From a virus: a stretch of DNA of 41,328 nucleotides. The first letter of the stretch is position 1. Each line of letters starts with the position of its first letter. The position numbers and the translations under genes are program-made. The stretch spans positions 1 through 41,328 of the IMG/VR virus record IMGVR_UViG_3300027749_000212, one strand, 5' to 3'. Positions 21,071 through 41,328 of this stretch are shown in pieces. The notes beneath the pieces were generated by a model. That model was not told where the DNA came from. It saw only the letters and a list, made by a program, of their open reading frames with translations, and did not search any database.

Positions 21071-22788
21071 TAAGATACTTTAAGTATATAGATGCAGGTA
21101 TATTTACTCTGCAGGACGGTACTCCATACACAGGAGTGGTGAATGTTATGGGCAATAACGTTTATACAGGTAGTGTCTTTGATTCTCAATCTGTTTTACT
21201 ATCTGCAACTAGTACATTCTTTGCACAAGTAATTGAAAATAAAATAGATATAGGTCCATACTATAGCTCTAATGTACCTATCTATAAGAATAGTATATCG
21301 CAACGTGATGTTTTAACGAGTAATACGTTGCGTGATGTATTTGACACATTAAATTTAAATAACCTAAAAATTTATGCAAGTCAAGTAACATATAACCCTA
21401 GTATATTCAATACTCTTACTAAAACACAAGACAAATTAACATATACAACATGCTTAACTAGTAATTCTGATACATTTACTGGTAAGTTACTACCTAAGAT
21501 ACGCGTATCAGCTAGCAACACGCAGTATTATACAGTTAGAGGTACATCTCAAAACTCTAACACACTTTTTCTAACAACATCAGCTGGTAAATATTATTAC
21601 TTTAATGGTAATCAGCAAATGTCTGGTACTATAAACTCAAACTTATCATCAAACATAGTTGACGGACTTCAAGCACCTCTTTTTGATAATAAGTTCTTTA
21701 AGTATAACCGCTATAATAACTCACTATTTCATACAACATTTGATAAGTGTTATGTTTATAATGTCTCATATGGTGAGAACGGATCATACCTATCACTAAG
21801 TGATAGTTTCTATATATCTTTAATACGAACCCTTACAGATAGACATAATTCTGTGTACGGTCCGACCTATAGATCAGCTCTTGTACAAGAGCAAGGTAAA
21901 TTAGTATTAGAATTGTCGTATGTAAATTCACAAGAATCTATTATAACGTACAACGCATCAGATCTAGGATTTAATTCTATAAATAGAATTGTTCAACGTT
22001 TTGAAGACGATATTTTAGCTGTTATTGGTAGTATTAAAAATGTAACCTATATTAAAGTGTATGACATTTCTACATTATTAACAAATACAGATTCTATTTA
22101 CTCTTCTGAATTAAAAAATGCAAACTTAACTGATACATTTGAGTTTGCACAATTTGATTCAAATATTCTAATAAGTAGAAGGTATAAATCAGATGGTACA
22201 ATTGATATTGTAGAATTTAGAACATTAACTTCAAGTGAATATCCTATATTACAATTTTCAAACAGTAGCTCACTTGGTATATTGCAATACAATAACATAA
22301 TTAATGAACAATATGTAAATATTAATGCCGCTGATATTATTTTGCTGCAGATGGATACACCTAGCAACAATAACATTATATACGATATTCAATTTTCTTG
22401 TAGTAATACATTAAATGCAGCGTTATTTTTAAATGATAGCTTTACTATTGTTAATAATTCTACATTTCTAAGCATACCACCTACAACATTACCGAAAAAC
22501 TATGTAAGTATTGACTTATTTGATAACAGTATTGGTTTAAATATTAATAATATTACAAAAAATATACTAAGTGATGTATTGTCACTATATTCAAACAGTT
22601 CTAAGATGTATAATTATAATACAGGCGCTGTAACTGGAACAAAACCAGCAACTATTGATAGTGTTGGTGTAAGTGATTTATATATGTACGAAAATGAGTA
22701 TATAAATGTAGGCACATTAAATCGAATAATCAATGAGTTATTCAGTATTCAACAAAAACTTGCTGTTAATACTAACTCTCAAGTATAA
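21067..22788 (+). CDS. Beta-rich fibre/baseplate-rim protein
   Basis: 573 residues, not recognised. The start lies in the stop of the previous gene. The N-terminus (MIRYFKYIDAGIFTLQDGTPYTGVVNV) looks like a short attachment motif; many repeated Asn/Ser/Tyr beta-strands follow, including 'KYYYFNGNQQMSGTINSNL'. The last ~70 residues include 'YENEYINVGTLNRIINELFSIQQKLAVN', a likely C-terminal coiled segment. The stop overlaps the TATAAATA box for the following gene. Probably part of the same appendage as the 731-residue protein, judged from coupling and composition. Confidence 0.6.
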   Translation: MIRYFKYIDAGIFTLQDGTPYTGVVNVMGNNVYTGSVFDSQSVLLSATSTFFAQVIENKIDIGPYYSSNVPIYKNSISQRDVLTSNTLRDVFDTLNLNNLKIYASQVTYNPSIFNTLTKTQDKLTYTTCLTSNSDTFTGKLLPKIRVSASNTQYYTVRGTSQNSNTLFLTTSAGKYYYFNGNQQMSGTINSNLSSNIVDGLQAPLFDNKFFKYNRYNNSLFHTTFDKCYVYNVSYGENGSYLSLSDSFYISLIRTLTDRHNSVYGPTYRSALVQEQGKLVLELSYVNSQESIITYNASDLGFNSINRIVQRFEDDILAVIGSIKNVTYIKVYDISTLLTNTDSIYSSELKNANLTDTFEFAQFDSNILISRRYKSDGTIDIVEFRTLTSSEYPILQFSNSSSLGILQYNNIINEQYVNINAADIILLQMDTPSNNNIIYDIQFSCSNTLNAALFLNDSFTIVNNSTFLSIPPTTLPKNYVSIDLFDNSIGLNINNITKNILSDVLSLYSNSSKMYNYNTGAVTGTKPATIDSVGVSDLYMYENEYINVGTLNRIINELFSIQQKLAVNTNSQV

Positions 22789-22791
22789 ATA
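22784..22791 (+). promoter_or_regulatory. T4-late promoter, exact TATAAATA
   Basis: Perfect TATAAATA, ending 5 bases before the ATG at 22797 (spacer ATTTT). It overlaps the stop codon of the preceding gene. Confidence 0.68.
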
Positions 22792-28618: not shown

Positions 28619-28626
28619 TATTTATT
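28619..28626 (-). promoter_or_regulatory. T4-late-like promoter box (divergent pair)
   Basis: AATAAATA on the minus strand, 6 bases before the ATG at 28612. The 32-base gap between the two divergent starts holds both boxes and nothing else. Confidence 0.58.
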
Positions 28627-28644: not shown

Positions 28645-29064
28645 ATGACAAAATTTGAGAAGAGATTCTTTCACGTCTTACACGAACAAGATGCAGATAG
28701 AGAAGCTATGCTATCTACATTAGATCAGGATACTAACCCTGATGACTTTAATGTAAATACTGCTCCTCCAGCAGACTCCGCAAATACTGCTGTATCTCAA
28801 GCTATTACTGATCGAAATAATCAAATGGTTCAGCAAATAAAGGGTTGGATCTCTGAGATGGAGCAATTTCGTGATATGTTAAATGGTACAGAAAACTCAA
28901 TTCAAACAGCTCTTGCTTCCGCTGAACCTGATACAATCTTGGATAAAATGAGAAGCTCTGAGCAAAGAAAGATTGCTCGTGTTGCTACTGAGCTTGCTGC
29001 TCTTACTGAGACATTTAAAGGGTACTTATCTCAAGCCGGTGATGCTTCACTCAAGTATGTATAA
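28645..29064 (+). CDS. Helical, probably virion-associated protein
   Basis: 139 residues, not recognised by function. After 'TKFEKRFFHVLHEQDADREA' there is an Asp/Asn/Pro-rich linker, then long amphipathic helices (NQMVQQIKGWISEMEQFRDM; KIARVATELAALTETFKGYL). This pattern resembles small structural or scaffold-associated proteins of marine T4-like phages. A late-type box 5 bases upstream agrees. It converges on the primase gene with a 14-base overlap, marking the border between the late plus-strand genes and the minus-strand replication block. Confidence 0.6.
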   Translation: MTKFEKRFFHVLHEQDADREAMLSTLDQDTNPDDFNVNTAPPADSANTAVSQAITDRNNQMVQQIKGWISEMEQFRDMLNGTENSIQTALASAEPDTILDKMRSSEQRKIARVATELAALTETFKGYLSQAGDASLKYV

Positions 29065-30100
29065 GTCGCTTTATATTAGCTAATCTCAAAACACCTTCTA
29101 TACCATTATACGTATGCTTTTTTATAAAGTCGTGAGATATTTCATCGATCTTACACTTCATACAAATGTCGTTAAAGTCTTTAAATTGTCTACCAAACTT
29201 TTCTGGCCATATGAATACACTATGACCATCCTTGAGTAAAATTTCTGACTTAACGAGTGATGTATTGTCAATCCACTGGCTATCTAAAACCCAAATTTTG
29301 TTATACCATTTTAGTGTATTATCAATTTGCTGCTGTTGCTTTAAGGTAAATGTGTTTTTACCTTTGTCAGTAATACCTGCGACAGCAACACTATTTTTCG
29401 TAAAGAATGCGTTTACTGGACCTTCAAATACATAGACAGTATCGTAATCAGAACTAACTTGATTAATGTTGAATAGGGTCTTCTCAGCGTTAATCTTAGA
29501 TATATACTTTGGCCTTGTCTTTAAATCCTTTTCTAGGAAACCACGTGTCTGGTAGAACGCTATATTGTCTTTTTCATCTACGAATGGTATTACAAGTCTG
29601 TTTTTATGATTAAAATCTGCAAGAGAGATATATAGACTTGATGGTCTATTAACAGCTGTATCTAGTCGTCGTTTCTTAATTAACTCAAGACACTTCTGTA
29701 CTACCTCATTACCTTTATAGAAGTTTAGCTGTATACTATCAGACAGATTAATACTGTCTTTCGGCAAAGTACTAGACTGTACTAACTTCGGTACTTCTTC
29801 CTTATCCGTAAAGGTGATTTCTTCATAACCATAATCCTTTACTTCTTCGATAATATCGATGTTCTCACACCTTGATATCTCCTTTATCCACTTGAACGGT
29901 TTGCTAGACCAACCGCAATTGTGACAAAAAATAATATCCTTTGCAGGTATATAGAAACACCTTCTTTTCTTACCTAAAGATTTACCTTCCCTACATATAC
30001 AACAACCACCTTGATATGTATTATTATACTTGTTGTGCTTTGGTTGGTGTGTATACTGGAAGAACTTTGATACGATGTAGTCTACCGGTAGTGAGATCAT
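29051..30100 (-). CDS. 61: DNA primase, gp61-like
   Basis: 349 residues (T4 gp61 is 342). The N-terminal zinc-binding domain shows CCICREGK followed by CFYIPAKDIIFCHNCGWS, i.e. CxxC-type pairs about 30 residues apart. The TOPRIM-like core has 'YVFEGPVNAFFTKN', with the catalytic Glu, then 'AVAGITDKG' and 'IWVLDSQWID', in which the usual second acidic residue of a DxD is replaced by Gln. 'RLVIPFVDEKDNIAFYQTRGF' is the conserved segment before TOPRIM in phage primases. It makes RNA primers for lagging strands with the gp41 helicase encoded at 36970-39881. Start and the exonuclease stop overlap as ATGA, so the two are coupled. Confidence 0.88.
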   Translation of the reverse strand: MISLPVDYIVSKFFQYTHQPKHNKYNNTYQGGCCICREGKSLGKKRRCFYIPAKDIIFCHNCGWSSKPFKWIKEISRCENIDIIEEVKDYGYEEITFTDKEEVPKLVQSSTLPKDSINLSDSIQLNFYKGNEVVQKCLELIKKRRLDTAVNRPSSLYISLADFNHKNRLVIPFVDEKDNIAFYQTRGFLEKDLKTRPKYISKINAEKTLFNINQVSSDYDTVYVFEGPVNAFFTKNSVAVAGITDKGKNTFTLKQQQQIDNTLKWYNKIWVLDSQWIDNTSLVKSEILLKDGHSVFIWPEKFGRQFKDFNDICMKCKIDEISHDFIKKHTYNGIEGVLRLANIKRLIHT

Positions 30101-30966
30101 TCAAAAAGTAATCTTAGCTTATGTTTTACGAAAAACAAGTTATACCAGTTATCTTTCTTACTTAGAATATTATTCAGCTTATGATCTATACATAGCTGAA
30201 TGAAAGTATTGTAATTGGGGAGCAACGAGCTGACATCACTAAGCTGCTTGTCGAGCCATGTACGTTCAGATTCACAATTTTCATCTTTATATCTATTAAG
30301 TCTAAAGAGCTCATAATTTCGTGTATATATTTCAAGCTGCTCTTCTGTTAAGAGTATTTTATTTTCTAAAAATGCTTGGACTTTATTTTTACCGAATCTA
30401 GGGATACCTGGAACGTTATCAGACTTATCTCCTTGTAGGCACTTAATGAGTACAAATTCTTCTTTAGAGCATTTTGCTACTCCCTCAAAGTTATCAAGTG
30501 TACAATATACTTTAGAGATAGGACTATATAGAGTTACGCTCTCATTAACAAGCTGTAAAAAGTCTTTATCTACAGATACAATAACACTCTTACCCTCTAG
30601 TGTATCGCATAGATATGACACACAATCATCAGCTTCTAACTTTTCAGGATAAATAGAAGGTATACCGAGATGCACCAGAAACTCTTTAATAAGGGAATTG
30701 TTCTGATGAGGTGTAGTGTCACCTGAACGATTACCCTTATAATCACTGTAGATAGATTTGCGTTCGTTTATATGGTAATTAGGCTTTTCATCCCAACACG
30801 CATATATTCTATCTGGCTTAAACATATCAACATAACTTTTAATTGCGTTAAGAGTGAAGTAAACATGAAAGCTATTCAGTTTTTCTAAGTCATCGCCTGC
30901 AGCATTTTTAGCTGTCCAGTGAGTTCGATGGATCAAATTGTTCGCGTCTAGGATTAGATTTTTCAT
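30097..30966 (-). CDS. rnh: RNase H / 5'-3' exonuclease (FEN-like, T4 rnh type)
   Basis: 289 residues (T4 RNase H is 305). Motifs of the flap-endonuclease superfamily appear in order: LILDANNLIHR, 'ACWDEKPNYH' with 'YKGNR', LEADDCVSYL, VSVDKDFLQLV, and the helix-hairpin-helix 'GDKSDNVPGIPRFGKNK'. The acidic residues that hold two metals are all present. It removes primers from Okazaki fragments during lagging-strand repair. It sits directly before primase with a 4-base overlap and begins 59 bases inside the small upstream gene. Confidence 0.93.
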   Translation of the reverse strand: MKNLILDANNLIHRTHWTAKNAAGDDLEKLNSFHVYFTLNAIKSYVDMFKPDRIYACWDEKPNYHINERKSIYSDYKGNRSGDTTPHQNNSLIKEFLVHLGIPSIYPEKLEADDCVSYLCDTLEGKSVIVSVDKDFLQLVNESVTLYSPISKVYCTLDNFEGVAKCSKEEFVLIKCLQGDKSDNVPGIPRFGKNKVQAFLENKILLTEEQLEIYTRNYELFRLNRYKDENCESERTWLDKQLSDVSSLLPNYNTFIQLCIDHKLNNILSKKDNWYNLFFVKHKLRLLFE

Positions 30967-31210
30967 TTACTTTGTATTGATCTACAGCGGTGCTTACGAC
31001 ATATTGTGGTACTCGCTCAACAAATTTAATTATACCCTTGTTCCTTGCGTTCTCAAATACTAACTTAGAGACTTCTCTATTTTCCATTTTTGGAATAGAG
31101 AGAAACTGATACACGTCCTTATGAGTCTTTAAATATATTAAGATCTCACCAGCATATGTGCCTGTGTGCACGGCGTAGCTATCGCCGTGCACCAATCCAA
31201 TCTTAAACAT
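30908..31210 (-). CDS. Small replication-block protein, unknown
   Basis: 100 residues. Beta-rich N-terminus (FKIGLVHGDSYAVHTGTYAG), then 'YLKTHKDVYQFLSIPKMENR' and 'GIIKFVERVPQYVV', a pattern seen in small unknown proteins of T4-like cyanophages as far as I recall. The C-terminal ~20 residues are charged, overlapping the exonuclease start by 59 bases; a frame conserved over such a long overlap suggests both are translated. Two bases separate it from the gene upstream. No catalytic residues are evident. Confidence 0.6.
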   Translation of the reverse strand: MFKIGLVHGDSYAVHTGTYAGEILIYLKTHKDVYQFLSIPKMENREVSKLVFENARNKGIIKFVERVPQYVVSTAVDQYKVNEKSNPRREQFDPSNSLDS

Positions 31211-31212
31211 AA

Positions 31213-31527
31213 TTACACTTCAGGTTGTATTTGTGGGACACCCTTCTCAATTAACGCCGTTACAATAACTTCCATAGATGAAGTTTTGATAGAAAAGTTG
31301 CGAGGGAATAAACGAGATCCATCATTGAACTCAAACATCTTTTCGCTCTTATAATCTCTGTTTTCGTAGCAAGTAATGTAAATAGAAGTATTGCCTGGAT
31401 CTACTAAGATAGTCCATTTACGTGGATCAGATTCAGCGTACTTGTCATACATCTTCCATGTAGTAAATCCACAATCCTTCAATCTCTTTACAAAATACGA
31501 TAATGTAGTTATTTTATTCTTTATCAT
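31213..31527 (-). CDS. Small unknown protein coupled to the sliding clamp
   Basis: 104 residues, starting in the clamp stop codon (ATGA). N-terminal 'LSYFVKRLKDCGFTTWKMYD' is helical; then strands 'KWTILVDPGNTSIYITCYEN' and 'SEKMFEFNDGSRLFPRNFSI'. It resembles a small alpha/beta protein with no recognised catalytic motif. Coupling to gp45 suggests a replication or late-transcription accessory role, which is inference from position only. Confidence 0.6.
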   Translation of the reverse strand: MIKNKITTLSYFVKRLKDCGFTTWKMYDKYAESDPRKWTILVDPGNTSIYITCYENRDYKSEKMFEFNDGSRLFPRNFSIKTSSMEVIVTALIEKGVPQIQPEV

Positions 31528-32252
31528 TGTGTTAGTGTAGTTATTATATATTTTAATTTAGTGCTGCTATTGCAAATATCAACGATATTAACACCTACAT
31601 TTGTATTGATACCGAAATGAATAACATCATCAATACAATGCAATAGTCTCACGTTATCTAAGTTAAGAATAACAGGATCTAACTCAAAATCAACTGTACC
31701 CAATGTTAAAGAGTACATATCAGTATTGTGCTTTGATCTATCTGTTAGCTCAGCTCTCAAATCAGTCCCATCTGTAAATAAATAGACTTTGCTTGTATCT
31801 GTAGCAAACGAGCTACCTTTGATAATGCTTGTCAATACTTGCTTTGTGAACTTGAAATTTACATCACACTTAAGCTCCATTACCTTGTTTACATTAATTG
31901 ACGGCTTGCTAAGATATCCATCATCGAAAAGATGATACTTAAACTTAACACCTGAGCCCTTGTATTCAATGCTGTTGTTATTAAGAGTAAACTCAATACT
32001 TTCTGTATTGATATTATCAACTACTCTCATTAACTTGTTAATGTCCGGTATATTAAGTGTAGCATTTATAGTGCTATACACATTATTAATTTCACCGTAC
32101 AGAATAAGATTTTGATCCGGAGACGCTACCAACGAAGTGAGCGTACCATTGTCTGATACGCTCACTATAGCTGAATTATTTATTTTTGAAATAGCGTCTA
32201 AAAACCTCAACCAGTCAATCCTTGATTGTATTTTTAGCTTTTGATTTGACAT
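31524..32252 (-). CDS. 45: Sliding clamp, gp45-like
   Basis: 242 residues (T4 gp45 is 228). There are no catalytic motifs, as expected; identity rests on length, the beta-alpha clamp pattern ('WLRFLDAISKINNSAIVSVS', 'STINATLNIPDINKLMRVVD', 'VYLFTDGTDLRAELTDRS', 'VILNLDNVRLLHCI') and its place between gp32 and replication genes. It tethers the polymerase to DNA and, in T4, also activates late transcription together with gp33 and gp55. That fits the many T4-late-like boxes in this window. It begins 38 bases inside the upstream small gene and overlaps the next by ATGA. Confidence 0.78.
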   Translation of the reverse strand: MSNQKLKIQSRIDWLRFLDAISKINNSAIVSVSDNGTLTSLVASPDQNLILYGEINNVYSTINATLNIPDINKLMRVVDNINTESIEFTLNNNSIEYKGSGVKFKYHLFDDGYLSKPSINVNKVMELKCDVNFKFTKQVLTSIIKGSSFATDTSKVYLFTDGTDLRAELTDRSKHNTDMYSLTLGTVDFELDPVILNLDNVRLLHCIDDVIHFGINTNVGVNIVDICNSSTKLKYIITTLTQ

Positions 32253-32622
32253 TACTTTCTTTAAGTATAACTGCTATCTTAGTTAAATTCAAATTAATTT
32301 CCTTCAATTGTTCTAATATTTCTTCGTTACCTAAGAATGACCCAATTGGCTGATATGCAGGTGGCTCTCTAAATACGAGTTCCAACTGTGTTTCAGCTTG
32401 AGACGGTTCAACCGTCGCGGGTGGGTGATATTGAGTATTATCCTGCGCATTCGGTACAGTTGGCATTTGCATCGCCTGCGCAAAATGTTGTTGAATATTA
32501 TTACTAACAGGCTGTAAGAATTGAGACTGACCAACAATCATCTGGTCAGTTTGCTTTGCTTGAGCGTGTGTAGTGCCTAAGAACTGCAACAACGCAGATT
32601 TTTCTTGTTCGGTCATTTGCAT
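32215..32622 (-). CDS. Small Gln/Pro-rich protein between gp32 and gp45
   Basis: 135 residues, not recognised. N-terminal 'MTEQEKSALLQFLGTTHAQA' is helical; a Gln/Pro-rich, probably disordered middle follows (about 35-90), and the C-terminus is a helix ending in a Lys-rich tail (ILEQLKEINLNLTKIAVIL). Start ATG at 32622, one base after the gp32 stop; another ATG two codons later is possible. A disordered linker with terminal helices would suit an adaptor binding two partners, but this is speculation. Confidence 0.55.
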   Translation of the reverse strand: MQMTEQEKSALLQFLGTTHAQAKQTDQMIVGQSQFLQPVSNNIQQHFAQAMQMPTVPNAQDNTQYHPPATVEPSQAETQLELVFREPPAYQPIGSFLGNEEILEQLKEINLNLTKIAVILKESNVKSKAKNTIKD

Positions 32623-32623
32623 C

Positions 32624-33478
32624 TTACAAGTCCTTTAGTAGTTCATCAATATCATCATCGATAGAAGTTTCATCTACCGAAACGGGTGATATAGTATTAG
32701 TTGCAGCGGGTTGCCACGGGGCTGACTCAGTCTTGATAGCTGGTGCATCTGCGACTGCTTGGTCACTTCCGGTCTTACATAGATAATGCTCATCGAACAT
32801 CTTCTTAAGATCGTCATAAGACTTCAAGCTATAAACCTTAGTAAGATCGAATGCCTTACCATAGATTTCATTCTGTTCCGCTTCAGAAAACTTAAGCTTG
32901 CCTGAAGCAGTAAAGCGAGATGAAACATATGTAGGAAACTCACCTTGATTTTCACACTTAATCTTGAAGTTGACACCATCTGGACCCAGATCAAAGATAC
33001 GTGAACCGAATTCCTCAGCATCTTCACCCTCAATAGCTTCAAGGATGATCTTCTGAAGCTGCTTACCATAACGGAGGATTTTCACCTTACCATTATTTTC
33101 AGGATTACTTGGATCATCAATAACGTACACGTTAACAAGAAACTTGTTGACACGTTTGATAGCCTTAACCTTTTCCTTTTCATCTTCACTACCAGTACGA
33201 AGAATCTTGAATCTTTCTTCTGCAATTGGATCTCTCTCACCGAATGTCATAGGTGAAAGCGCTTGAACGTATTGACCAGTTGCAAACGAAACCCAGCCAT
33301 GATTGAAGTATTCAAAGAAAGTATTCTTTGGATCGGATGGTAGCGGTAACAGCCTTACTGTATAAGTATTACCTGGGGTTGTCTTAAGAACTTCAGTGTA
33401 GGTACTATTACCTGCAGCTTCATTCTTGTTTAGTGCATCCTTAATGGATTGAAACATCGACATATTGTATTGGCTCAT
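32624..33478 (-). CDS. 32: Single-stranded DNA-binding protein, gp32-like
   Basis: 284 residues (T4 gp32 is 301). N-terminal basic/helical segment for cooperativity, then the OB-fold core with 'GNTYTVRLLPLP', 'RVNKFLVNVYVIDDPSNPEN' and 'KVKILRYGKQL', the clearest gp32 signature. The C-terminus is acidic (SIDDDIDELLKDL), as in gp32, where it contacts other replication proteins. Between residues 60 and 90, where T4 gp32 has its His/Cys zinc site, there is no cysteine (YVQALSPMTFGERDP), so the zinc site appears lost. It follows the possible gp59-position gene by 23 bases. Confidence 0.92.
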   Translation of the reverse strand: MSQYNMSMFQSIKDALNKNEAAGNSTYTEVLKTTPGNTYTVRLLPLPSDPKNTFFEYFNHGWVSFATGQYVQALSPMTFGERDPIAEERFKILRTGSEDEKEKVKAIKRVNKFLVNVYVIDDPSNPENNGKVKILRYGKQLQKIILEAIEGEDAEEFGSRIFDLGPDGVNFKIKCENQGEFPTYVSSRFTASGKLKFSEAEQNEIYGKAFDLTKVYSLKSYDDLKKMFDEHYLCKTGSDQAVADAPAIKTESAPWQPAATNTISPVSVDETSIDDDIDELLKDL

Positions 33479-33501
33479 ATTATTTTAGTTTATTGTTTAT
33501 T

Positions 33502-34167
33502 TTATTGTATTTGTTGTTTTTTATTTTGCAATAATTTATTTTCAATTATTGTAAAAGCTTTTCGAATCACATGTTTTAATTTAGATGATTTTTGAAAATT
33601 TATTCTTGTAGTATTTAGTATATCTGTAAAATCTTTAATGATGAAGTTGAGTATATCAACCTCCACTCTATTTATATTTTGATCGCAATTTAGACCATGG
33701 ATTGTATAAAAATTAATTCTATGATCTTTCAGATGTTGTAATAGTTCGGGCACCGAGCCTGTTGTATAAGTCTTATATTCTTCAAGTGTTAGATTGTTAT
33801 CTGCGCAGAAATTATAGATAAAAGCGCAAGCCGATTTACACTCATTTATAGTAGTATCATTATCTGGATCCTGCGTTTCTTTTTGTCTCTGGTATAGAGA
33901 GAAGCATTTAATGGCTTTTACTGTAGTGTAATACTGAAGATCAAAATATTCATCAGCACCGTAATACTTATATGGTGCTATAAAATAATCGTTCATTTTT
34001 ATATGCGGATACTTATTAAAGAATGCATATAATTTCTTAATAAGAATATAAGAAGTATCATCAAACTTAGAGAAATCTTTTCTGAAAGTGAACGGTTTAT
34101 TTTGAGCTTGACGTCCAGTTGCAATAAAAGTATTGTATATTTGTTTTTCAGTTGCTGTCAATGACAT
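33502..34167 (-). CDS. Replication-block protein in the gp59 position (unconfirmed)
   Basis: 221 residues. Predominantly helical, with conserved-looking aromatic segments 'KYPHIKMNDYFIAPYKYYG' and 'YFDLQYYTTVKAIKCFSLY', a middle Cys-containing segment and a basic C-terminus (HVIRKAFTIIENKLLQNKKQ). In T4, genes 33-59-32 are consecutive; here a 96-residue gene, this 221-residue gene and gp32 are consecutive on one strand, and T4 gp59 is 217 residues. I could not see gp59 sequence motifs, so the helicase-loader assignment is only positional. Its start overlaps the upstream gene by 10 bases. Confidence 0.6.
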   Translation of the reverse strand: MSLTATEKQIYNTFIATGRQAQNKPFTFRKDFSKFDDTSYILIKKLYAFFNKYPHIKMNDYFIAPYKYYGADEYFDLQYYTTVKAIKCFSLYQRQKETQDPDNDTTINECKSACAFIYNFCADNNLTLEEYKTYTTGSVPELLQHLKDHRINFYTIHGLNCDQNINRVEVDILNFIIKDFTDILNTTRINFQKSSKLKHVIRKAFTIIENKLLQNKKQQIQ

Positions 34168-34448
34168 AAACGCCGTCTGTTAATGTACTTTGTGACGTAC
34201 TTACTCTTTGTTATCGTAGGATCGTAGTCTAAAAACATTTTAACGATATCTTGATCAGAATCAACTCCTGAAAGGCTTTTTAGTAATTCTTTTAGTTTTG
34301 CGTCTTCTAATGTTAATATAAACACATTTTGAAAGGATAACTTTTTACCTTTTAGTAAAGTGCAGTATGAACAAAATGAAAGTAAGATATGTTCACTTTC
34401 TCTATCTATAATGCTTTGTGCAGGGCTTACGCAGACGTTAATGTACAT
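34158..34448 (-). CDS. Small protein in the gp33 position (unconfirmed)
   Basis: 96 residues. 'SEHILLSFCSYCTLLKGKKL' contains a CxxC pair, followed by 'FQNVFILTLEDAKLKELLKS' and a basic end (KYINRRRLCH). T4 gp33, the late-transcription co-activator, is 112 residues and lies directly upstream of genes 59 and 32, as this gene does. No gp33 motif, such as its hydrophobic clamp-binding C-terminus, is present here, so the identity is doubtful. It overlaps the DHH gene by 11 bases and the next gene by 10. Confidence 0.55.
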   Translation of the reverse strand: MYINVCVSPAQSIIDRESEHILLSFCSYCTLLKGKKLSFQNVFILTLEDAKLKELLKSLSGVDSDQDIVKMFLDYDPTITKSKYVTKYINRRRLCH

Positions 34449-35322
34449 ATGTGAGAGTTTTTGTAAAGTTTAAAAATTTATCTGTGATTTTGCCGCCAGC
34501 GGCATATTGATGACCTCCACCATCACACAATAACTCTGCTAACTTAGCTAAGTTAATGTCACAAGTATCTTTATTTTTTCTTATAGAAATGGTTTGTGTG
34601 TTTAACATCACTATAAATACAATATCAGCTTTGAATTTCTTTAAAGCTTGATGAGCAACTTCATTAATACCGAAGTCCGCAGTACAGCTAATTACTTTAT
34701 AACCCTTGAGTGTGCCTGAGTAATATTCCGCTCGTTCAAGCTGATCTTTCAGCTTATTAAAGTATAGCTTAATGGCATTTTGCTCTTGTATGTTGAAAGG
34801 TACAAATCCTTCTTCGTATCTACTAATAAACTTATCAACCTTAGGTTTGTTAAAGTTATGATACACAGCATTTAACTTTAGCGTTTCGCTAAAATTTAGT
34901 TGGTAAGAATCGTAGTCGTTTACTATATCAAATAGTGCCTGTAATTCGAGACTAATGTTTGATAAAACTTTACTAAAACGTTCTTGTATTAATTTAACAC
35001 ACGATGGATATGTCTTAATGCATACAGAAGCTATCTTGTACCTATCTTTTACTTCTAGATGAGAAGAATGATGATCAATAACAACAACCTTCTTTTTATC
35101 CACGTGAGGTATTAGCTTATCAGGTACAAATAAATCAGTAATGAAAATTAAATCATATTGATCGTAATTAGCGTCAATCCACGCTTTAAAATAACCGACT
35201 AACTCGTAATCACTTACCTCTCTAATATAGATTTCTTCAGCTTTATTTTTATAGACGTGTCTAAGTGCTAGAGCAGAGCATGCTCCATCTAAATCATTAT
35301 CTGTCCATATAGCAATCTTCAC
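34438..35322 (-). CDS. DHH/DHHA1-family phosphoesterase
   Basis: 294 residues from the GTG at 35322. Motif I is TDNDLDGACSA, motif II an Asp in 'LIFITDLFVP', motif III VVVIDHHSSH (the DHH), motif IV an Asp in 'DIVNDYDSY', and the DHHA1 domain ends in GGGHQYAAGG. All metal ligands are present, so activity is expected on short RNAs, ssDNA ends or cyclic/linear dinucleotides (RecJ, NrnA and GdpP belong to this superfamily). An ATG at 35328 overlaps the TATAAATA box; a decayed second copy of this region (36871-36955) keeps the GTG but not that ATG. This supports GTG as the start. Confidence 0.88.
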   Translation of the reverse strand: MKIAIWTDNDLDGACSALALRHVYKNKAEEIYIREVSDYELVGYFKAWIDANYDQYDLIFITDLFVPDKLIPHVDKKKVVVIDHHSSHLEVKDRYKIASVCIKTYPSCVKLIQERFSKVLSNISLELQALFDIVNDYDSYQLNFSETLKLNAVYHNFNKPKVDKFISRYEEGFVPFNIQEQNAIKLYFNKLKDQLERAEYYSGTLKGYKVISCTADFGINEVAHQALKKFKADIVFIVMLNTQTISIRKNKDTCDINLAKLAELLCDGGGHQYAAGGKITDKFLNFTKTLTYVH

Positions 35323-35336
35323 ATGCATATTTATAC
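35251..35336 (-). repeat. Direct repeat copy A: promoter and 5' end of DHH gene
   Basis: Aligned by hand with 36871-36955: 74 of 86 columns identical, with one base missing in copy B. Copy A is the functional one, covering TATAAATA and the first ~24 codons of the DHH gene. Weaker similarity ('TTAARTAATCAA') continues on the promoter side of both copies. The two copies bracket two glycosyltransferase genes. Confidence 0.88.
35328..35335 (-). promoter_or_regulatory. T4-late promoter, exact TATAAATA
   Basis: Perfect TATAAATA on the minus strand, ending 5 bases before the GTG at 35322. Confidence 0.68.
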
Positions 35337-35338
35337 CA

Positions 35339-36088
35339 CTATTTTAAATAATCAATAACACCCAATTCTTTATGTATTATATTAATTGGTTTTTGTGTAT
35401 TTTTATACATTGTACTTAATTCTACAAACTTACAATACTCTGACCACTTAGGTATTATTTCGTAACATGAATCAACACTATATTCTTTATTACATTTTAC
35501 AGCTTCATTAGTCATATCATGCTCTGTACTATACGTAGCATGGTAGTTTATCCCTCCCCAGTTGTACACATAATCTATATTGTTTTCATCTTTTTGATTA
35601 AACTTATTATCAATTCTATTGTAAAAGTCTACATCTTCACCTTTTGTTATATCAGCATAACCACCACATCTAGCCCAACCTTCTCGCTTGAGAGAACCAG
35701 CGCTACTCGAACAACCAGAAACATAGAACTTGTCTTGCGTTACATAATATGCTGCTGTGTTCCAGTAAAAAAATGCATCAGGGTGACTAATGTGAAATTT
35801 TACGTGATTTGATATACGACTAGGTAGAAAAATATCATCATCATCATAATGCATATATAAATCGTAATGACCAAACGAAACACCTATATTACGCTTACTA
35901 CCTAATGTTATTTTTTTTGTTAGATTTAATACATGAACATTTTCAATATCACATGTTAACTGTACATTTTTATCATCGTTAATAAAAATCAACTCTTTAT
36001 CGGTGTGATCTTGATCTAAGAAACTTGCTAAAACTCTACCTAATAAAGGTAGTCTACCGTAAGTTGGGCATATTACTAATACTTTCAT
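35339..36088 (-). CDS. Family-2 glycosyltransferase
   Basis: 249 residues. N-terminal KVLVICPTYGRLPLLGRVLAS and 'ELIFINDD' form the nucleotide-sugar fold; 'LGSKRNIGVSFGHYDLYMHY' leads into DDDD (the metal-binding DxD equivalent) and 'IFLPSRISNHV'; later 'KREGWARCGGYADITKGEDVDF' provides the acceptor-side ED motif. The donor and acceptor sugars cannot be told. It starts 10 bases after the fucosyltransferase-like gene stop and ends next to the DHH promoter. With that gene it forms the inserted block between repeat copies A and B. Confidence 0.87.
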   Translation of the reverse strand: MKVLVICPTYGRLPLLGRVLASFLDQDHTDKELIFINDDKNVQLTCDIENVHVLNLTKKITLGSKRNIGVSFGHYDLYMHYDDDDIFLPSRISNHVKFHISHPDAFFYWNTAAYYVTQDKFYVSGCSSSAGSLKREGWARCGGYADITKGEDVDFYNRIDNKFNQKDENNIDYVYNWGGINYHATYSTEHDMTNEAVKCNKEYSVDSCYEIIPKWSEYCKFVELSTMYKNTQKPINIIHKELGVIDYLK

Positions 36089-36098
36089 ATTTTATTAA

Positions 36099-36839
36099 TT
36101 AAACATCGTGTTTTATAATTTTATCATGATAAATGTCAGTAGCTTCACTATTATTCACGAACCACTTGGAAGGGAAATAAGATGTTTTATTGCCAATCAA
36201 AGCAGCCCACCAAGAAAAAGTGGAGTTGCTGCCGACTAATGTATCACACTTTGCCATGCATGCAAGCTCTTTAATATCGAAACTTGATTTTAAGATATCG
36301 AATTTATATTTGGCGAACTCATTTATTACATGATTTGGATCATCAGTAAATATTTTAATGTTTTTATTTTTAAATTTCTCAAAGAAATATTCAAAATATT
36401 CTGTATGACACACGTAGTGTATGGTTGGATGATTCAAATAATCACCCCGCCTAATATGAAATCCCACCTCAATTTTTACATCGTCGTTGATTTTGGGCAA
36501 GTCCAATAAAGATATAAATTCATCTTTAACATCTTCGAAATATTTTAAAGATTGAAAGTATCCATTTAATGATACATCTCCATCATAATATGGCAATTCA
36601 TCGTAGTTAAATCTTTTCTCTTGTATTATTGTGACATCTTCGGTGATGTAATTTCCATATTCGAAATTTTTAAATATTGTGTATTCGTATGCCAAAGGAT
36701 CTGTGCCTTGACTAGCAAACCAATTATTGGGATTTACAATTAATTTTTTACCATATTTTTTGGCGTATGCGTATCCAGCAGCTATTTGAAATAGCTGATT
36801 ACCCACACCACCAATGACATTTACATAACAATTATTCAT
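36099..36839 (-). CDS. Alpha-1,2-fucosyltransferase-like enzyme (GT11)
   Basis: 246 residues from the ATG at 36839. Family 11 motifs: VIGGVGNQLFQIAAGYAYA near the N-terminus, GFHIRRGDYLN in the middle (the HxRRGD motif that binds GDP-fucose) and 'LVGSNSTFSWWAALIG' near the C-terminus. The open frame continues upstream to an ATG at 36878, but those 13 extra codons lie in the decayed DHH copy, and family similarity starts at MNNCYVNVIGG, so 36839 is chosen. It would transfer fucose (or a related sugar) to a galactose-containing glycan. The likely promoter is the TATAAATA of the decayed copy, 107 bases upstream. Confidence 0.87.
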   Translation of the reverse strand: MNNCYVNVIGGVGNQLFQIAAGYAYAKKYGKKLIVNPNNWFASQGTDPLAYEYTIFKNFEYGNYITEDVTIIQEKRFNYDELPYYDGDVSLNGYFQSLKYFEDVKDEFISLLDLPKINDDVKIEVGFHIRRGDYLNHPTIHYVCHTEYFEYFFEKFKNKNIKIFTDDPNHVINEFAKYKFDILKSSFDIKELACMAKCDTLVGSNSTFSWWAALIGNKTSYFPSKWFVNNSEATDIYHDKIIKHDV

Positions 36840-36870
36840 TTTAAAATTGAAATAATATAATTTTGTCTTT

Positions 36871-36941
36871 ATAGACATGTCTTAGTGCGAGAGCTAAGCA
36901 AGCACCGTCTAAATCATTATCTGCCATATAGCAATCTTCAC
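36871..36941 (-). pseudogene. Decayed 5' fragment of the DHH phosphoesterase gene
   Basis: Beginning with GTG at 36941, the reading matches the DHH gene start (VKIAIW), but one base is missing shortly after TGG, so the frame hits TAG within 11 codons. Allowing for the lost base, it continues as DNDLDGACLALALRHVY. The fragment then merges into the fucosyltransferase leader. It is a relic of duplication, not a functional gene. Confidence 0.85.
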
Positions 36942-36946
36942 GTGTG

Positions 36947-36954
36947 TATTTATA
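36947..36954 (-). promoter_or_regulatory. TATAAATA retained in the decayed copy
   Basis: Exact TATAAATA, with the same 5-base gap to the dead GTG. It has escaped the decay seen in the coding part, so it may now drive the two glycosyltransferase genes. Confidence 0.55.
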
Positions 36955-36969
36955 CGGGTTCTTAAGTAA

Positions 36970-37386
36970 TCAACCTTTACTCAAGAATTCCAATGATGAG
37001 AATGAACTATCACCAGAATCAAAATCTACATCTTCTGTCTGTGTGATTGTTAGTGTAGTATAGTCAATACTCATAGGTTGAGTATGTCCTCGTGGGCCAT
37101 ATCGATTCTTCATCATACCAAGTCTAATAATATTGAGCTCTCTGTCTTCTTCATTCTGGAAGATGGACACAATAACGTCAGCTGTAGCTGCGAGGCCGAC
37201 ACTTTCTGAGATAGTAGCTAAGTCAGGGTTATCGTGGCCAAATCCACTATTATGTGTTAGTATATTATTTGCATAAAATAAATTATCATCAGATACAGAT
37301 ATATCTACAGTTACTGTCTCACCAACATCAACTATGCTAACAATTTCGTCATATTCCCAAGAATGCTTTACATTTGTTAATTTCAT
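36970..37386 (-). CDS. 41: Replicative helicase gp41-like, C-terminal half with split-intein C-part
   Basis: 138 residues. Residues 1-46 are the C-terminal intein fragment: 'DVGETVTVDISVSDDNLFYA' and then NNILTHN, the penultimate His and final Asn needed for splicing, followed by Ser47 as the +1 nucleophile. Residues 47-138 are the end of a DnaB-type RecA domain: SGFGHDNPDLATISESVG, 'ADVIVSIFQNEEDRELNIIR', 'KNRYGPRG' (arginine-finger region), and an acidic C-terminus (DVDFDSGDSS). It has no N-terminal helicase part and would be useless without ligation to the product of 38568-39881. Its start lies 38 bases inside the homing endonuclease gene, in another frame. Confidence 0.93.
   Translation of the reverse strand: MKLTNVKHSWEYDEIVSIVDVGETVTVDISVSDDNLFYANNILTHNSGFGHDNPDLATISESVGLAATADVIVSIFQNEEDRELNIIRLGMMKNRYGPRGHTQPMSIDYTTLTITQTEDVDFDSGDSSFSSLEFLSKG
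37249..37386 (-). other. Split intein, C-terminal fragment (46 residues)
   Basis: Encodes MKLTNVKHSW... to the HN at the splice site. Block F-like 'VDISVSDDNLFYANNILTHN' is close in style to known gp41-type split intein C-parts. Cleavage is predicted between Asn46 and Ser47 (Ser codon 37246-37248). Confidence 0.92.
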
Positions 37387-38539
37387 TATTTTTATCTATT
37401 CTATAATCTTTTTCCCATATTACAAGCACATCGTAATTTTTTGTAGTTGCTTGTTTAATTTTAATTTCATCATAATACCACATTTCTTCACAGGTCCTGT
37501 TCTTTTTATATGGATGCGGAGTATCTGTGATACTATAAATAGTAGGGTTACCATGAAATATATCACCATTAAATTCTATTATTTTTTTTGTTTTAATATT
37601 AACATAATCAAAAAAATATACACCTGTATCTGTATTCATTACAAATTCTTTATTTTTAGTTGCATAATAAACATACGGATTTTGACTATCCAACATATCA
37701 AAAAGTTCCTGTGATATTTTTGAGTAAGATGATACTCCTAAAGCACTAGTAGACAACCAGTTTTCGTATTTAGATTTTCCTTCTAATTCACCATAACGTA
37801 ATATATAACTTTCGAGAGTATTATTAAAACGTTTTTTAGCAATAAATTTATTATATCGATATAAACCATTATCTACACCGTATCGTTTTTGATAGCTTAG
37901 TAATGACGTATTATTTTTTGATTCCTTTATACGTTTTAATCCATCAACCTCGCCATATTTAGAAACAAAACCTAGCGTGGAAGCGCCGAAATTTAGCGCA
38001 GAAATTTTTTTCTCGTAAATCTTACAACCTTCACCTTCCCCGTATTTAGATATAAAATAATCTTTAGTACCTTTATTTTTTTCTTTATGTTTTAAATTAT
38101 TAAATTTTATTACACCTTCTTCTTTACCATACTTTTTAATAAATCTGTCAATAGTCTTATTACCTTTATTTTTCAAACAAAAACTATTATATCTATCTAA
38201 TCCTTCTAAATAACCATATCTTCGTATAAATGATTCACGTGTATTGCTTTTTAAAAATTTGTTATTTTTATACTTCAATAATCCCTCTTCGATACCATAC
38301 CGTAATTGAAATAGTTCAAGTGTATGTTTACCACCATATATTTGTATATACTGAACAACTTTAGAATATGCATCTAACCAATTTCCTTTTAAATCTACCT
38401 CACAAAATTCTGCAATAATTCGTATTTGATGTGATTTTATCTTAAATTGATGTATAATTTGTTGAATCTGATATAGTTGTTCTTGATTGGGAGTTTTTTG
38501 TGTAAATTTTTTCCATATCTTTGTTTCATAAATATTCAT
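37349..38539 (-). CDS. Vsr-like (EDxHD-type) homing endonuclease with seven RYG repeats
   Basis: 396 residues. The C-terminal ~90 residues carry the nuclease: 'KIIEFNGDIFHGNP' (Glu322, Asp326, His329), then 'MWYYDEIKIKQA' and 'YDVLVIWEKDYR', the pattern of the homing endonuclease family found in fractured phage genes and related to Vsr repair nucleases. Residues about 77-265 are seven repeats of (F/Y)xxRYGxxEGxxRY, with YG at 81, 108, 137, 166, 194, 220 and 249, probably DNA-binding modules. It lies between the two helicase halves on the same strand, so it is the mobile element that splits the gene. A CATAAATA box stands 7 bases before its ATG. Confidence 0.88.
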   Translation of the reverse strand: MNIYETKIWKKFTQKTPNQEQLYQIQQIIHQFKIKSHQIRIIAEFCEVDLKGNWLDAYSKVVQYIQIYGGKHTLELFQLRYGIEEGLLKYKNNKFLKSNTRESFIRRYGYLEGLDRYNSFCLKNKGNKTIDRFIKKYGKEEGVIKFNNLKHKEKNKGTKDYFISKYGEGEGCKIYEKKISALNFGASTLGFVSKYGEVDGLKRIKESKNNTSLLSYQKRYGVDNGLYRYNKFIAKKRFNNTLESYILRYGELEGKSKYENWLSTSALGVSSYSKISQELFDMLDSQNPYVYYATKNKEFVMNTDTGVYFFDYVNIKTKKIIEFNGDIFHGNPTIYSITDTPHPYKKNRTCEEMWYYDEIKIKQATTKNYDVLVIWEKDYRIDKNNEINKCKAFLGI

Positions 38540-38546
38540 ATTAATA

Positions 38547-38554
38547 TATTTATG
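38547..38554 (-). promoter_or_regulatory. T4-late-like promoter box of the homing endonuclease
   Basis: CATAAATA on the minus strand, 7 bases before the ATG at 38539 and just after the N-half stop. It would uncouple endonuclease expression from the early helicase transcript, as known for T4 homing endonucleases with late promoters. Confidence 0.58.
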
Positions 38555-38567
38555 TTATCGTCTCAGT

Positions 38568-39881
38568 TTAAGTCAATTTTTTAACCATCAGTTGATTACC
38601 TATATTTAAACCACTACTAATCGACTGTATCCCGTTTTTTGTTGGAAAGAGGTGTTTACTACTGCAAATAATTTCTTTACCGGATTTCGTTGTTATTTTA
38701 TAGCACTTCTGAATTTCACGCGGGTATACATAACGAACTGTAACAAAACTACCCTTACCTGAAATTTGATCACCTGCTTTAATATTACCAAGAGTTTTAA
38801 CACCTTCTGTTGTTATAATCTCTGTATCTATATCTAAACAACGATTCAACTGAGTAGCAGAAATAAATGGACAGTTAAAGACATAGCTCATCGCTCTGAC
38901 TTGCTCAGTAACGTTCTTTACACGTTCGTATGAGTTAGTACCAATAGGCGAATGTATCAAGTTAAGATAGTCAACAACTACAGTATCAATTTTAATTCCT
39001 TGATCTGTAATTTTCTTGATGAATGCCTTGAGTTGATTCGGTGTAATTGTACTTGGAGGAAATTCCTTAATAAATAACTGACCTTTGCCCTGAGACTCTC
39101 GTTCTCTAACAGCTTGTCTTAGAGCATGAGTATTGAAACTCAGATCTTTCAGAGGTATCTTACTTACATTAGAGCAAATACGCTTTGCATATAGTAACTC
39201 AGACATTTCTAGAGTTATAAGCAAAACATTTTTACCTTGGTTCGCAATATTAGCAGCAATATTACCTAGAAAGATAGATTTACCAATGTTAGTCTCACCT
39301 GCAAATACATAAAGAGCTCGTCCGTTCTCCATGAAGCCACCATTTAGAGCTGTATCAAGCCATTCCCATGTACTTGGAATACTCTTTTGTACATTAGTCA
39401 AATCATCAATAAGAATCTCAATGTCTCTATGTAGATTAAATCCTAAATCAGTAACAAGATTAATGTTACAAGATTTTTCAAACTTATCTAACATCTTAGC
39501 TGTATCGATACTACCCTTAGAAAGATCACTGGCCATTTCAAGCATTGTAACATACACAGCTTTCTCTTTTAGAAAGCGCTCTGTATTCTCATATAGCTCT
39601 TCCTTGTCGATATTCTTATCAATATCAGAGAACGAATTGACTAATTGCTTAAAAGAGTTACGCAACTCTTCTGTAGTCAGGTAAGTCTTTACTTCTGTGA
39701 GCGTTGGTAACTTACCACGTCTATCGCTAAACTCAGATATAATATTGAATACAGAAGCAATATTTTTATCTTTGAAATACGTAGGTTTGACATGATCTAC
39801 AATCGTCGTCAGATATGTAGAATCAAAAAGTGCTTTATAACAAAGCACTTTTTCAAAATAATCAGTATTTAAATCACTCAC
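38568..39881 (-). CDS. 41: Replicative helicase gp41-like, N-terminal half with split-intein N-part
   Basis: 437 residues, starting at GTG (39881). Residues 1-150 are the helical N-terminal domain; residues about 165-347 are the RecA-like motor, with Walker A GETNIGKS (195-202), 'VLLITLEMSELLYAKRI' and Walker B VVVDYLNLI (301-309). The extein stops at 'FISATQLNR' (residue 347), in the conserved DnaB-family motif ending QLNR, a known intein site. Residues 348-437 are the intein N-fragment. The extein halves add up to 439 residues, against 475 in T4 gp41. Spliced, it unwinds DNA ahead of the fork and works with primase. Confidence 0.93.
   Translation of the reverse strand: MSDLNTDYFEKVLCYKALFDSTYLTTIVDHVKPTYFKDKNIASVFNIISEFSDRRGKLPTLTEVKTYLTTEELRNSFKQLVNSFSDIDKNIDKEELYENTERFLKEKAVYVTMLEMASDLSKGSIDTAKMLDKFEKSCNINLVTDLGFNLHRDIEILIDDLTNVQKSIPSTWEWLDTALNGGFMENGRALYVFAGETNIGKSIFLGNIAANIANQGKNVLLITLEMSELLYAKRICSNVSKIPLKDLSFNTHALRQAVRERESQGKGQLFIKEFPPSTITPNQLKAFIKKITDQGIKIDTVVVDYLNLIHSPIGTNSYERVKNVTEQVRAMSYVFNCPFISATQLNRCLDIDTEIITTEGVKTLGNIKAGDQISGKGSFVTVRYVYPREIQKCYKITTKSGKEIICSSKHLFPTKNGIQSISSGLNIGNQLMVKKLT
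38571..38840 (-). other. Split intein, N-terminal fragment (90 residues)
   Basis: Begins with Cys348 (TGT 38838-38840): CLDIDTEIITTEGVKTLGNI carries block A, and 'KSGKEIICSSKHLFPT' is block B with its His. It ends 'GNQLMVKKLT', the usual end point of gp41-type split N-parts. Splicing is therefore expected in trans with 37249-37386. Confidence 0.93.
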
Positions 39882-39888
39882 GTTGTTA

Positions 39889-40557
39889 TTATAGCTTACC
39901 TCTCCATTTGCTCAAGAACCATTCTTGACCCTTTAGAAACTCCGGAGTAAATTCTCTTAACCCAGGAGAATTATGTGTAATTAAAATATCAGATACCCCA
40001 ACCTTAAACCCAGCTTGATGACACTGTAAACTATAATCCAAATCATAATAGTGGTAGCCTGCTGGGTTACTTTCATCAAATCTAATTTGCTCAAACACTC
40101 TACGATGAATAGCCATAAAGACACCATCAATCAAAACTACTCGTTTTGGATATGGTCCAAATGACGTCATATGTTTTTGATCTGCATTTCCATGAGCTAC
40201 AGCTCCATGCAGTTTGCCTCCTTCAAATCCACCTCCCATGATATGCCAAAGTGCAGGCTCTTGCAACTTACACTCTGTTGTACCTGCTACACCAACAATA
40301 TCAAAATCACTTCGGAGAATATCTGGTAGTTTGTATGGCACATCAGATTCAATAATTACATCATCATGGCATATAACTAAATAATCCTTTTTACCTTTAA
40401 TTGCCATATCAATGGCTTTGTTGTATACAACAGGAAGAGGCTTTGTATTATTTTCTGCAAAGAAGAACTTATTGTAACTAGATGTATTTTTAAATAACAG
40501 AGTATCACTTTTTGAACCCTTTGTTGCAGAGAAGTAGAATGTTTTTTGTATTGACAT
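39889..40557 (-). CDS. Glycosyltransferase, GT2 (StrF-like) type
   Basis: 222 residues. 'DYLVICHDDVIIESDVPYKL' has the DD metal motif; 'FDIVGVAGTTECK', 'LIDGVFMAIHRRVFEQIRFD' and 'YHYYDLDYSLQCHQAGFKVG' with 'ITHNSPG' follow in the order of the StrF-type glycosyltransferase family (Glyco_tranf_2_5). This small cytoplasmic enzyme transfers a sugar; donor and acceptor are unknown. It starts 3 bases after the amidotransferase stop and ends 7 bases before the helicase N-half, in one apparent minus-strand unit. Confidence 0.85.
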   Translation of the reverse strand: MSIQKTFYFSATKGSKSDTLLFKNTSSYNKFFFAENNTKPLPVVYNKAIDMAIKGKKDYLVICHDDVIIESDVPYKLPDILRSDFDIVGVAGTTECKLQEPALWHIMGGGFEGGKLHGAVAHGNADQKHMTSFGPYPKRVVLIDGVFMAIHRRVFEQIRFDESNPAGYHYYDLDYSLQCHQAGFKVGVSDILITHNSPGLREFTPEFLKGQEWFLSKWRGKL

Positions 40558-40560
40558 ATA

Positions 40561-41226
40561 TTATATAAATAAGAATGGTGATTTTGTTTTGAATTGATTA
40601 ACTTTTACCCAACGACTATGATCTACTAACATCATGATATCCCCTTCTGGAAGTTCCTTATAACCTTCACCAGGTAGTGTAGAACAATCACCGAGGTCAT
40701 TATAGTGTAAAATAGATCCTTGTCTTGCAATATATACATCATTACTATCTGTATCTATAATACACAGAGCAAATGTACCTTCAAGTAACTCTAGTGTACG
40801 TCTAATAATTTCATGACCTAAGCATTCACCTACACACTCTTCAGTAAATTTTTGCAGTAAGTCAGGTATAACTGACGTATCAACTGTACTAGTATTATGA
40901 CTAACATGCTTAGCTTTTAAAGCATCACTATTAGTGAGTACACCGTTATGAATAACGGCCCAAGATGTTGATTCAAATGGATGAGATGTATCATATTTCC
41001 ACTTTTTGTTAATTGATGTAGGAGCTTGAACATGTCCGACATAATAATCACTAGTAGCTTCAAGTGGATACTTATTGAAATCAAGGGTACCAGCCTTCTT
41101 CAAAATTAACTGATCACTAGTACCTTCAAGACACATTACACTCGAGGCAAAATTACCCCTTTCTTGATTTATTTGATAGAGTATCTCAAATTTGCTTAGG
41201 TTGTTAGCTGAAAATATTGCACACAT
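40561..41226 (-). CDS. Class II glutamine amidotransferase (glutaminase domain only)
   Basis: 221 residues from the ATG at 41226, which places Cys at position 2 (MCAIFS). Removal of the Met exposes this N-terminal nucleophile, a rule of the Ntn family that fixes the start; the longer frame from TTG at 41277 would bury it. Further family motifs: 'YVGHVQAPTS', 'VIHNGVLTN' (oxyanion hole Asn-Gly) and 'VDTSVIPDLL' (glutamine binding). There is no isomerase or synthetase domain, so it may supply ammonia to another subunit or act alone. Neighbouring glycosyltransferases hint at amino-sugar metabolism, but that link is inference. Confidence 0.88.
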   Translation of the reverse strand: MCAIFSANNLSKFEILYQINQERGNFASSVMCLEGTSDQLILKKAGTLDFNKYPLEATSDYYVGHVQAPTSINKKWKYDTSHPFESTSWAVIHNGVLTNSDALKAKHVSHNTSTVDTSVIPDLLQKFTEECVGECLGHEIIRRTLELLEGTFALCIIDTDSNDVYIARQGSILHYNDLGDCSTLPGEGYKELPEGDIMMLVDHSRWVKVNQFKTKSPFLFI

Positions 41227-41230
41227 TGTA

Positions 41231-41328
41231 TTATAGGTATTTTCGTCTATCTTTTGGAATTCTCCAGAAGAAATCAATTTTATCTGTTAAAGTATTTGTT
41301 GCTAGAGCGTATGAAGGATATTCAATAC
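41231..41328 (-). CDS. C-terminal end of an upstream gene (partial)
   Basis: One minus-strand frame is open from the window edge to TAA at 41231-41233, giving 31 residues: IEYPSYALATNTLTDK, then IDFFWRIPKDRRKYL. It ends 4 bases before the amidotransferase ATG, the tight spacing typical of this block. The other two frames close early. Not recognised; the gene continues beyond the window. Confidence 0.5.
   Translation of the reverse strand, partial: IEYPSYALATNTLTDKIDFFWRIPKDRRKYL

What the first reader, a model, noticed from the sequence alone, without database searches (positions are those of the whole stretch)
36970..39881. Fractured gp41 helicase: split intein with an endonuclease gene between the halves
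Seen: the N-half ends in an intein N-part starting at Cys348; the C-half begins with an intein C-part ending HN|S; a Vsr-like endonuclease gene lies between them on the same strand. Known: this 'fractured gene' layout was described from environmental metagenomes, including gp41 helicases. Inference: the endonuclease targets the uninterrupted helicase gene, and helicase activity depends on trans-splicing. Here the endonuclease gene also has its own late-type box and overlaps the C-half start by 38 bases, which would tie its expression timing to that of the C-half.
Basis: partly seen in the sequence, partly recalled or inferred. Interest (0 to 1): 0.85.

Follow-up and report, generated by a model that had tools for sequence, protein, structure and literature searches.

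The report
Mobile split-intein cassette breaking phage helicase
A phage's DNA-copying helicase gene has been cut in two by a parasitic cassette (two halves of a self-splicing protein with a DNA-cutting enzyme gene between them), and a nearly identical phage without the cassette suggests that it arrived recently and brought a few bases of its donor with it.

Summary
On the minus strand lie a gp41-type helicase N-half plus IntN (38568-39881), a Vsr/EDxHD-type endonuclease (37349-38539), and IntC plus the helicase C-half (36970-37386). This is a "fractured gene", a kind named in 2009 (Dassa et al.). The intein sits at QLNR|S; its nearest relatives are other fractured gp41 loci at the same site. 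New evidence found here: (1) contig L032 is an almost isogenic intact allele (99.8% over 4,868 bp), so the cassette is exactly 1,592 bp. Eight of the ten differences lie within 150 bp of the junction, and three consecutive bases (CCA) match another occupied allele (L070) in a form absent from 64 distinct intact junctions. This is what homing with co-conversion should leave. (2) The nuclease is seven ~29-aa bihelical repeats plus a Vsr-like domain; its relatives sit between intein halves in dozens of phage contigs and in cultured phages. (3) Its gene carries the phage's own TAAATA start box, the only one in the replication gene cluster. (4) The nuclease/C-half overlap occurs in 27 of 29 related cassettes, so it is generic. 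New member of a known kind; splicing, cleavage, homing and timing remain inferred.

The parts
38568..39881 (-). gp41/DnaB-type helicase N-half (GTG start) fused to IntN
   Evidence: DnaB_C E 1e-22; ORF
38571..38840 (-). IntN, 90 aa, starting at Cys348
   Evidence: gp41-1 intein 6qaz E 2e-19; TIGR01445 just below its cut-off
37249..38840 (-). Whole mobile cassette, 1,592 bp (IntN, nuclease, IntC), absent from the almost isogenic allele L032
38547..38552 (-). TAAATA late-type box, 7 nt before the nuclease ATG
   Evidence: that it is a promoter is inferred
37349..38539 (-). Endonuclease, 396 aa: bihelical repeat array plus Vsr/EDxHD-like domain
   Evidence: model pLDDT 94.6; fold matches; relatives
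37733..38329 (-). Seven ~29-aa repeats (residues 71-269), presumed DNA-binding
   Evidence: DNA binding is inferred
37352..37723 (-). Vsr/EDxHD-like catalytic domain (residues 273-396; invariant D311, E322, G325, conserved H329)
36970..37386 (-). IntC fused to helicase C-half
37249..37386 (-). IntC, 46 aa, ending HN before Ser+1
37235..37243 (-). C-extein positions that differ from the intact allele (37243, 37237-37235); CCA at 37237-37235 as in occupied allele L070
38841..38841 (-). Last N-extein base, CGT here, CGA in the intact alleles L032 and L003

Best explanation
A mobile fractured-gene cassette. The nuclease, read late in infection from its own box, recognises and cuts intact gp41 genes of co-infecting relatives at the QLNR|S codons. 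Repair from the occupied copy inserts IntN-nuclease-IntC and converts a short flank. The two helicase halves are made separately and joined by intein trans-splicing, so an essential gene tolerates the insertion while imprecise loss would be harmful. Shown here: the anatomy, a precise insertion in an otherwise almost identical genome, a donor-type flank, site-specific relatives, a Vsr-like fold, and a start box beyond chance. Inferred: splicing, cleavage, homing and timing.
For: Intein halves with all splice-junction residues. Intact allele L032, exact 1,592-bp insertion, 8 of 10 differences within 150 bp of it (p 2e-7 with runs counted once). CCA at +12 to +14 shared with occupied L070; CCAC there in none of 64 distinct intact junctions. 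119 intact loci against the window and L070/L071 occupied. Same-site cassettes with homologous nucleases, 31-48% identity. Intein tree groups by site. Nuclease fold Vsr / I-Bth0305I. Box statistics.
Against: No cleavage, splicing or homing assay exists for this locus. One intact near-isogenic contig only, and it begins 123 bp upstream of the site. The three outer differences (+105, +141, +150) are not all donor-like; at +105 the window base matches no allele compared. No complete genome, so a second gp41 is not excluded.
Confidence: 0.85

Rival explanations
1. The cassette is old and vertically inherited, with a nuclease that no longer homes; L032 is a precise loss, or recombination with an intact relative, rather than the ancestral state.
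For: Loss by recombination with an intact co-infecting phage would also give clustered differences around the site. L032 is a single contig.
Against: L003 (88%) and all other examined relatives of the lineage are intact, and L032 shares L003's bases at +12 to +14 while the window carries the L070-type bases. The nuclease ORF is intact with its conserved residues.
Confidence: 0.1
2. The clustered changes beside the insertion are adaptive or mutational (better splicing context, repair errors) rather than donor sequence; homing happened but the flank is not co-converted.
For: Most changes are synonymous or conservative; tract short; outer differences not donor-like.
Against: Three consecutive changed bases equal those of L070 in another background and CCAC is absent from 64 distinct intact junctions; synonymous changes cannot improve splicing.
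Confidence: 0.15
3. The arrangement is an assembly chimera.
For: Metagenomic contig; no second contig with exactly this nuclease leader was found.
Against: Exteins are in frame on both sides and together match the intact protein; independent contigs and cultured phages have the same order.
Confidence: 0.02

Closest known systems
Fractured genes with split inteins and Vsr-like homing endonucleases (Dassa et al. 2009, doi 10.1093/nar/gkp095; paper not held, known from citing papers and memory)
   Same: Conserved replication gene broken by a split intein with a free-standing endonuclease gene between the halves; nuclease of the Vsr-like class; phage setting
   Different: No new layout. Added here: near-isogenic intact allele, donor-type flank, repeat-array model of the nuclease
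gp41-8-type split intein loci (L073/L075)
   Same: Same insertion site QLNR|S in a gp41/DnaB helicase; intein parts 52% identical
   Different: Unrelated 498-aa nuclease ORF with DUF7487 between the halves
gp41-1 split intein (PDB 6qaz)
   Same: Intein fold and sequence, 45% over IntN+IntC
   Different: Inserted three residues downstream (RSGY|SSSD); site-B cassettes carry other ORFs, some with NUMOD3 or HNH
I-Bth0305I (EDxHD homing endonuclease) and E. coli Vsr
   Same: Fold of the C-terminal domain
   Different: Here preceded by a seven-repeat bihelical array; I-Bth0305I is intron-encoded
I-TevI and other T4 intron endonucleases
   Same: Late promoter inside an early/middle gene, immediately before the nuclease (PMC2988022)
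   Different: Group I intron, GIY-YIG nuclease; an RNA hairpin control is only hinted at here
Aeromonas phage Aes508 gp43B and Tenacibaculum phage PTm1 DNA polymerase
   Same: Split gene, VSR endonuclease between the halves, homologous nuclease
   Different: Host gene is a DNA polymerase, not a helicase

Membership tests
Fractured gene (split intein plus free-standing endonuclease) | Enzyme gene in two ORFs, N-part ending in IntN and C-part starting with IntC | tested here: met
Fractured gene (split intein plus free-standing endonuclease) | Separate endonuclease gene between the two halves | tested here: met
Fractured gene (split intein plus free-standing endonuclease) | Halves trans-splice to an active enzyme | not testable with these tools
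   junction residues C1, H63, HN and S+1 are present
Mobile (homing) element | Intact target allele exists and the insertion is precise | tested here: met
   L032, 1,592 bp
Mobile (homing) element | Co-conversion of flanking sequence from a donor | tested here: inconclusive
   +12 to +14 match L070 and the differences cluster, but the actual donor was not found and the outer differences are not all donor-like
EDxHD/Vsr-type homing endonuclease | Vsr/I-Bth0305I catalytic fold | tested here: met
   1cw0 probability 0.96-0.98, 3r3p 0.77-0.84; E-values weak (0.04-1.8)
EDxHD/Vsr-type homing endonuclease | Conserved acidic and His catalytic residues | tested here: met
   D311 and E322 invariant, D326 and H329 in at least 90% of 55 relatives; correspondence to named catalytic residues was not superposed
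EDxHD/Vsr-type homing endonuclease | Site-specific cutting of the intact gene | not testable with these tools
   needs purified protein
gp41-8-type intein allele | Insertion at QLNR|S of gp41/DnaB | tested here: met
   that L073/L075 are gp41-8 alleles rests on a remembered sequence
gp41-8-type intein allele | Same nuclease class in the cassette | tested here: not met
   L073 ORF shows no similarity to the window nuclease
T4-like late-promoter control | TAAATA box before the nuclease, shared with other genes of the phage | tested here: met
   13 of 43 starts, 0.44 expected; 10 of 29 related cassettes; promoter function itself not tested

The most novel reading that the evidence does not exclude
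The nuclease family (array of ~29-aa bihelical repeats followed by a Vsr/EDxHD-like domain) is the phage counterpart of eukaryotic organellar HPR/OPR-RAP and FASTK proteins, which have the same order of parts (helical repeats, then a Vsr-like RAP domain). The repeats would be a modular nucleic-acid-reading array whose number and residues set the homing target.
Probability: 0.08. Interest if true: 0.8.

Novelty: new member of a known kind. Interest (0 to 1): 0.52.

Why it matters
Fractured genes are the source of fast split inteins used in biotechnology, but their mobility has, as far as I know, been argued mainly from layout. An intact and an occupied allele 99.8% identical, with donor-type bases at the junction, give a natural before-and-after pair: a ready substrate for cleavage and homing tests. 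If the flank is co-converted, the cassette can bring its own C-extein start with it; that would matter because 28 of 64 distinct intact junctions have a +1 residue (Ala, Gly, Gln) unsuited to splicing. The repeat-array nuclease is a possible modular DNA-binding scaffold.

Tried and rejected
Pfam, NCBIfam and PDB sequence searches with the nuclease alone gave nothing useful; a nuclease query without an alignment gave one weak locus. A scan of 84,980 bacterial and archaeal genomes with the nuclease alignment found no relative; the search is pattern-limited. An exact search for this cassette's nuclease leader in viral contigs found no other copy. An RNA hairpin at the nuclease start, as in I-TevI, is possible in the window and in L072 but not beyond shuffles, so it is not claimed. 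TATAAATA counts over the whole window are not above chance; only the position relative to start codons is. TATAAATA at 36947-36954 lies in a duplicated gene start and is not a gp41 element. Overlap of nuclease and C-half as a specific timing device was rejected, since 27 of 29 cassettes have it. Dassa 2009 could not be read. No Rfam match and no tRNA in the window.

Full report
CHECK. The three ORFs are as described. The N-half is a DnaB/gp41-type helicase (DnaB_C E 1e-22) that runs into IntN at Cys348. IntN matches the solved gp41-1 intein at E 2e-19. The C-half opens with IntC (TIGR01443) and continues as the DnaB-like helicase C-terminus (PHROG 19, 4e-10). Nuclease and C-half overlap by 38 bases. 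The record is a 41,328-bp viral fragment with one gp41, one intein and one such nuclease.

INTACT ALLELE. A search with the N-half gave 30 viral loci, of which 29 read straight through at this site. L032 is 99.8% identical to the window over 4,868 bp, plus 123 identical bp upstream, and lacks exactly 1,592 bp (37249-38840). Ten positions differ. One is the last N-extein base; four lie in the first 14 C-extein bases; three more are at +105, +141 and +150; only two lie far away (35538-35539). Counting runs as single events, five of six right-hand events fall within 150 of 4,868 bp (p 2e-7 under a uniform model). The 88% relative L003 shares the L032 bases at +12 to +14 (TAG), while the window has CCA, as does the occupied allele L070. 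A second survey gave 119 intact loci with 64 distinct 24-nt junction sequences; none has CCAC there. The nearest intact relatives of L070 (91-93% in protein) mostly read AGFDQDNP, a few SGFDQDNP, against SGYDHDNP in L070. Both occupied alleles thus carry the same His codon in different backgrounds. The simplest reading is gap repair from an occupied donor with a short co-converted tract. The tract supported by donor match is about 14 bp; the outer three differences are not explained by L070.

RELATIVES. A search with an IntN alignment gave 286 candidate loci, 80 kept. They sort into three main gp41/DnaB sites: A, QxNR|S (the site here, and of the gp41-8-like loci L073/L075); B, RSGY|SSSD (gp41-1 type); C, SE|S(F/A)GL. 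Equating L073 with gp41-8 and B with gp41-1 rests on remembered extein sequences plus the PDB match. A tree of intein parts groups largely by site and puts the window with L069, L070, L072, L074 and L144. Closest intein parts: L069, L072 and L070 at 61-62%, gp41-8-like L073 at 52%, gp41-1 at 45%. The helical-repeat Vsr nuclease is in 28 of 33 site-A, 0 of 30 site-B and 3 of 7 site-C cassettes; the site-A number is inflated because part of the set was found with the nuclease as query. Cultured phages with homologous nucleases in split polymerase genes include Aes508 (annotated N-intein, VSR, C-intein) and PTm1. Shigella phage ESh36 has a fractured gp41 at site C with a different gene between the halves.

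NUCLEASE. AlphaFold with 55 sequences gives pLDDT 94.6: a superhelix of seven ~29-aa bihelical repeats and a C-terminal domain. Modelled alone, that domain matches Vsr-DNA 1cw0 (probability 0.96), I-Bth0305I 3r3p (0.77) and, slightly better, two chains of the T. gondii mitoribosome, 9i05_Xv and Xl (0.99, 0.98). Literature: the T. gondii mitoribosome holds five RAP-domain proteins (PMC11742926); RAP domains have a restriction-endonuclease-like fold modelled on 1vsr and 3r3p, and some RAP proteins have helical repeats before it (PMC8190603); FASTKD4 is Vsr-like (PMC11879112). I could not check that these particular chains are RAP proteins, and all matches have E above 0.001, so this is a lead only. 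A different repeat-plus-EDxHD/Vsr architecture (CapR-like modules) was reported in phage group II introns (PMC12350094).

EXPRESSION. TAAATA stands 5-8 nt before the start codon in 13 of 43 window genes, 0.44 expected, p 4e-16. Nine of these are plus-strand genes; that strand carries the baseplate gene. In the replication cluster (29051-41277) only the nuclease has the box. It recurs before the nuclease in 10 of 29 related cassettes but before the C-half in 1 of 29. I read it as a late promoter brought in with the cassette, comparable to I-TevI (PMC2988022). The helicase halves would come from the early operon transcript, with extra C-half made late; this is inference.

VERDICT. A fractured gp41 helicase with a site-A split intein and a repeat-array Vsr-type homing endonuclease: a new member of a known kind, with unusually direct sequence evidence for recent homing. 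Splicing, cleavage and timing are inferred.

Noticed in passing
window, 13 gene starts, e.g. 14719-14724, 22786-22791, 28619-28624: A TAAATA motif sits 5-8 nt before the start codon in 13 of 43 genes (0.44 expected), so close that transcripts would be almost leaderless if it is a late promoter.
   Followed up: partly
window 35248-36973: Two ~106-bp direct repeats (83% identical) of the start of a DHH-family gene flank two glycosyltransferase genes (GT11, GT2). The 88% relative L003 lacks the two genes, L032 has them: a second insertion polymorphism next to gp41.
   Followed up: partly
L062 1-10000: One contig appears to carry several broken genes with split-intein halves: gp41 (Vsr-type nuclease between), an RNA-ligase-like gene (another ORF between) and a C-part of a third.
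   Followed up: no
L095, L096, L098 (430 bp) and L130 (423 bp): Split inteins at sites A and B whose halves are separated by too little DNA to hold a nuclease: nuclease lost, or not yet gained.
   Followed up: no
L188 840-3420: IntN and a Vsr-type nuclease lie in one continuous reading frame at a QQNR|S site, a possible link between whole inteins and fractured genes.
   Followed up: no
L033 (Shigella phage ESh36, ON528746.1): A Tequatrovirus record with a fractured gp41, annotated only as two DNA primase/helicase ORFs around a hypothetical protein; a possible laboratory model. The record is marked UNVERIFIED.
   Followed up: partly
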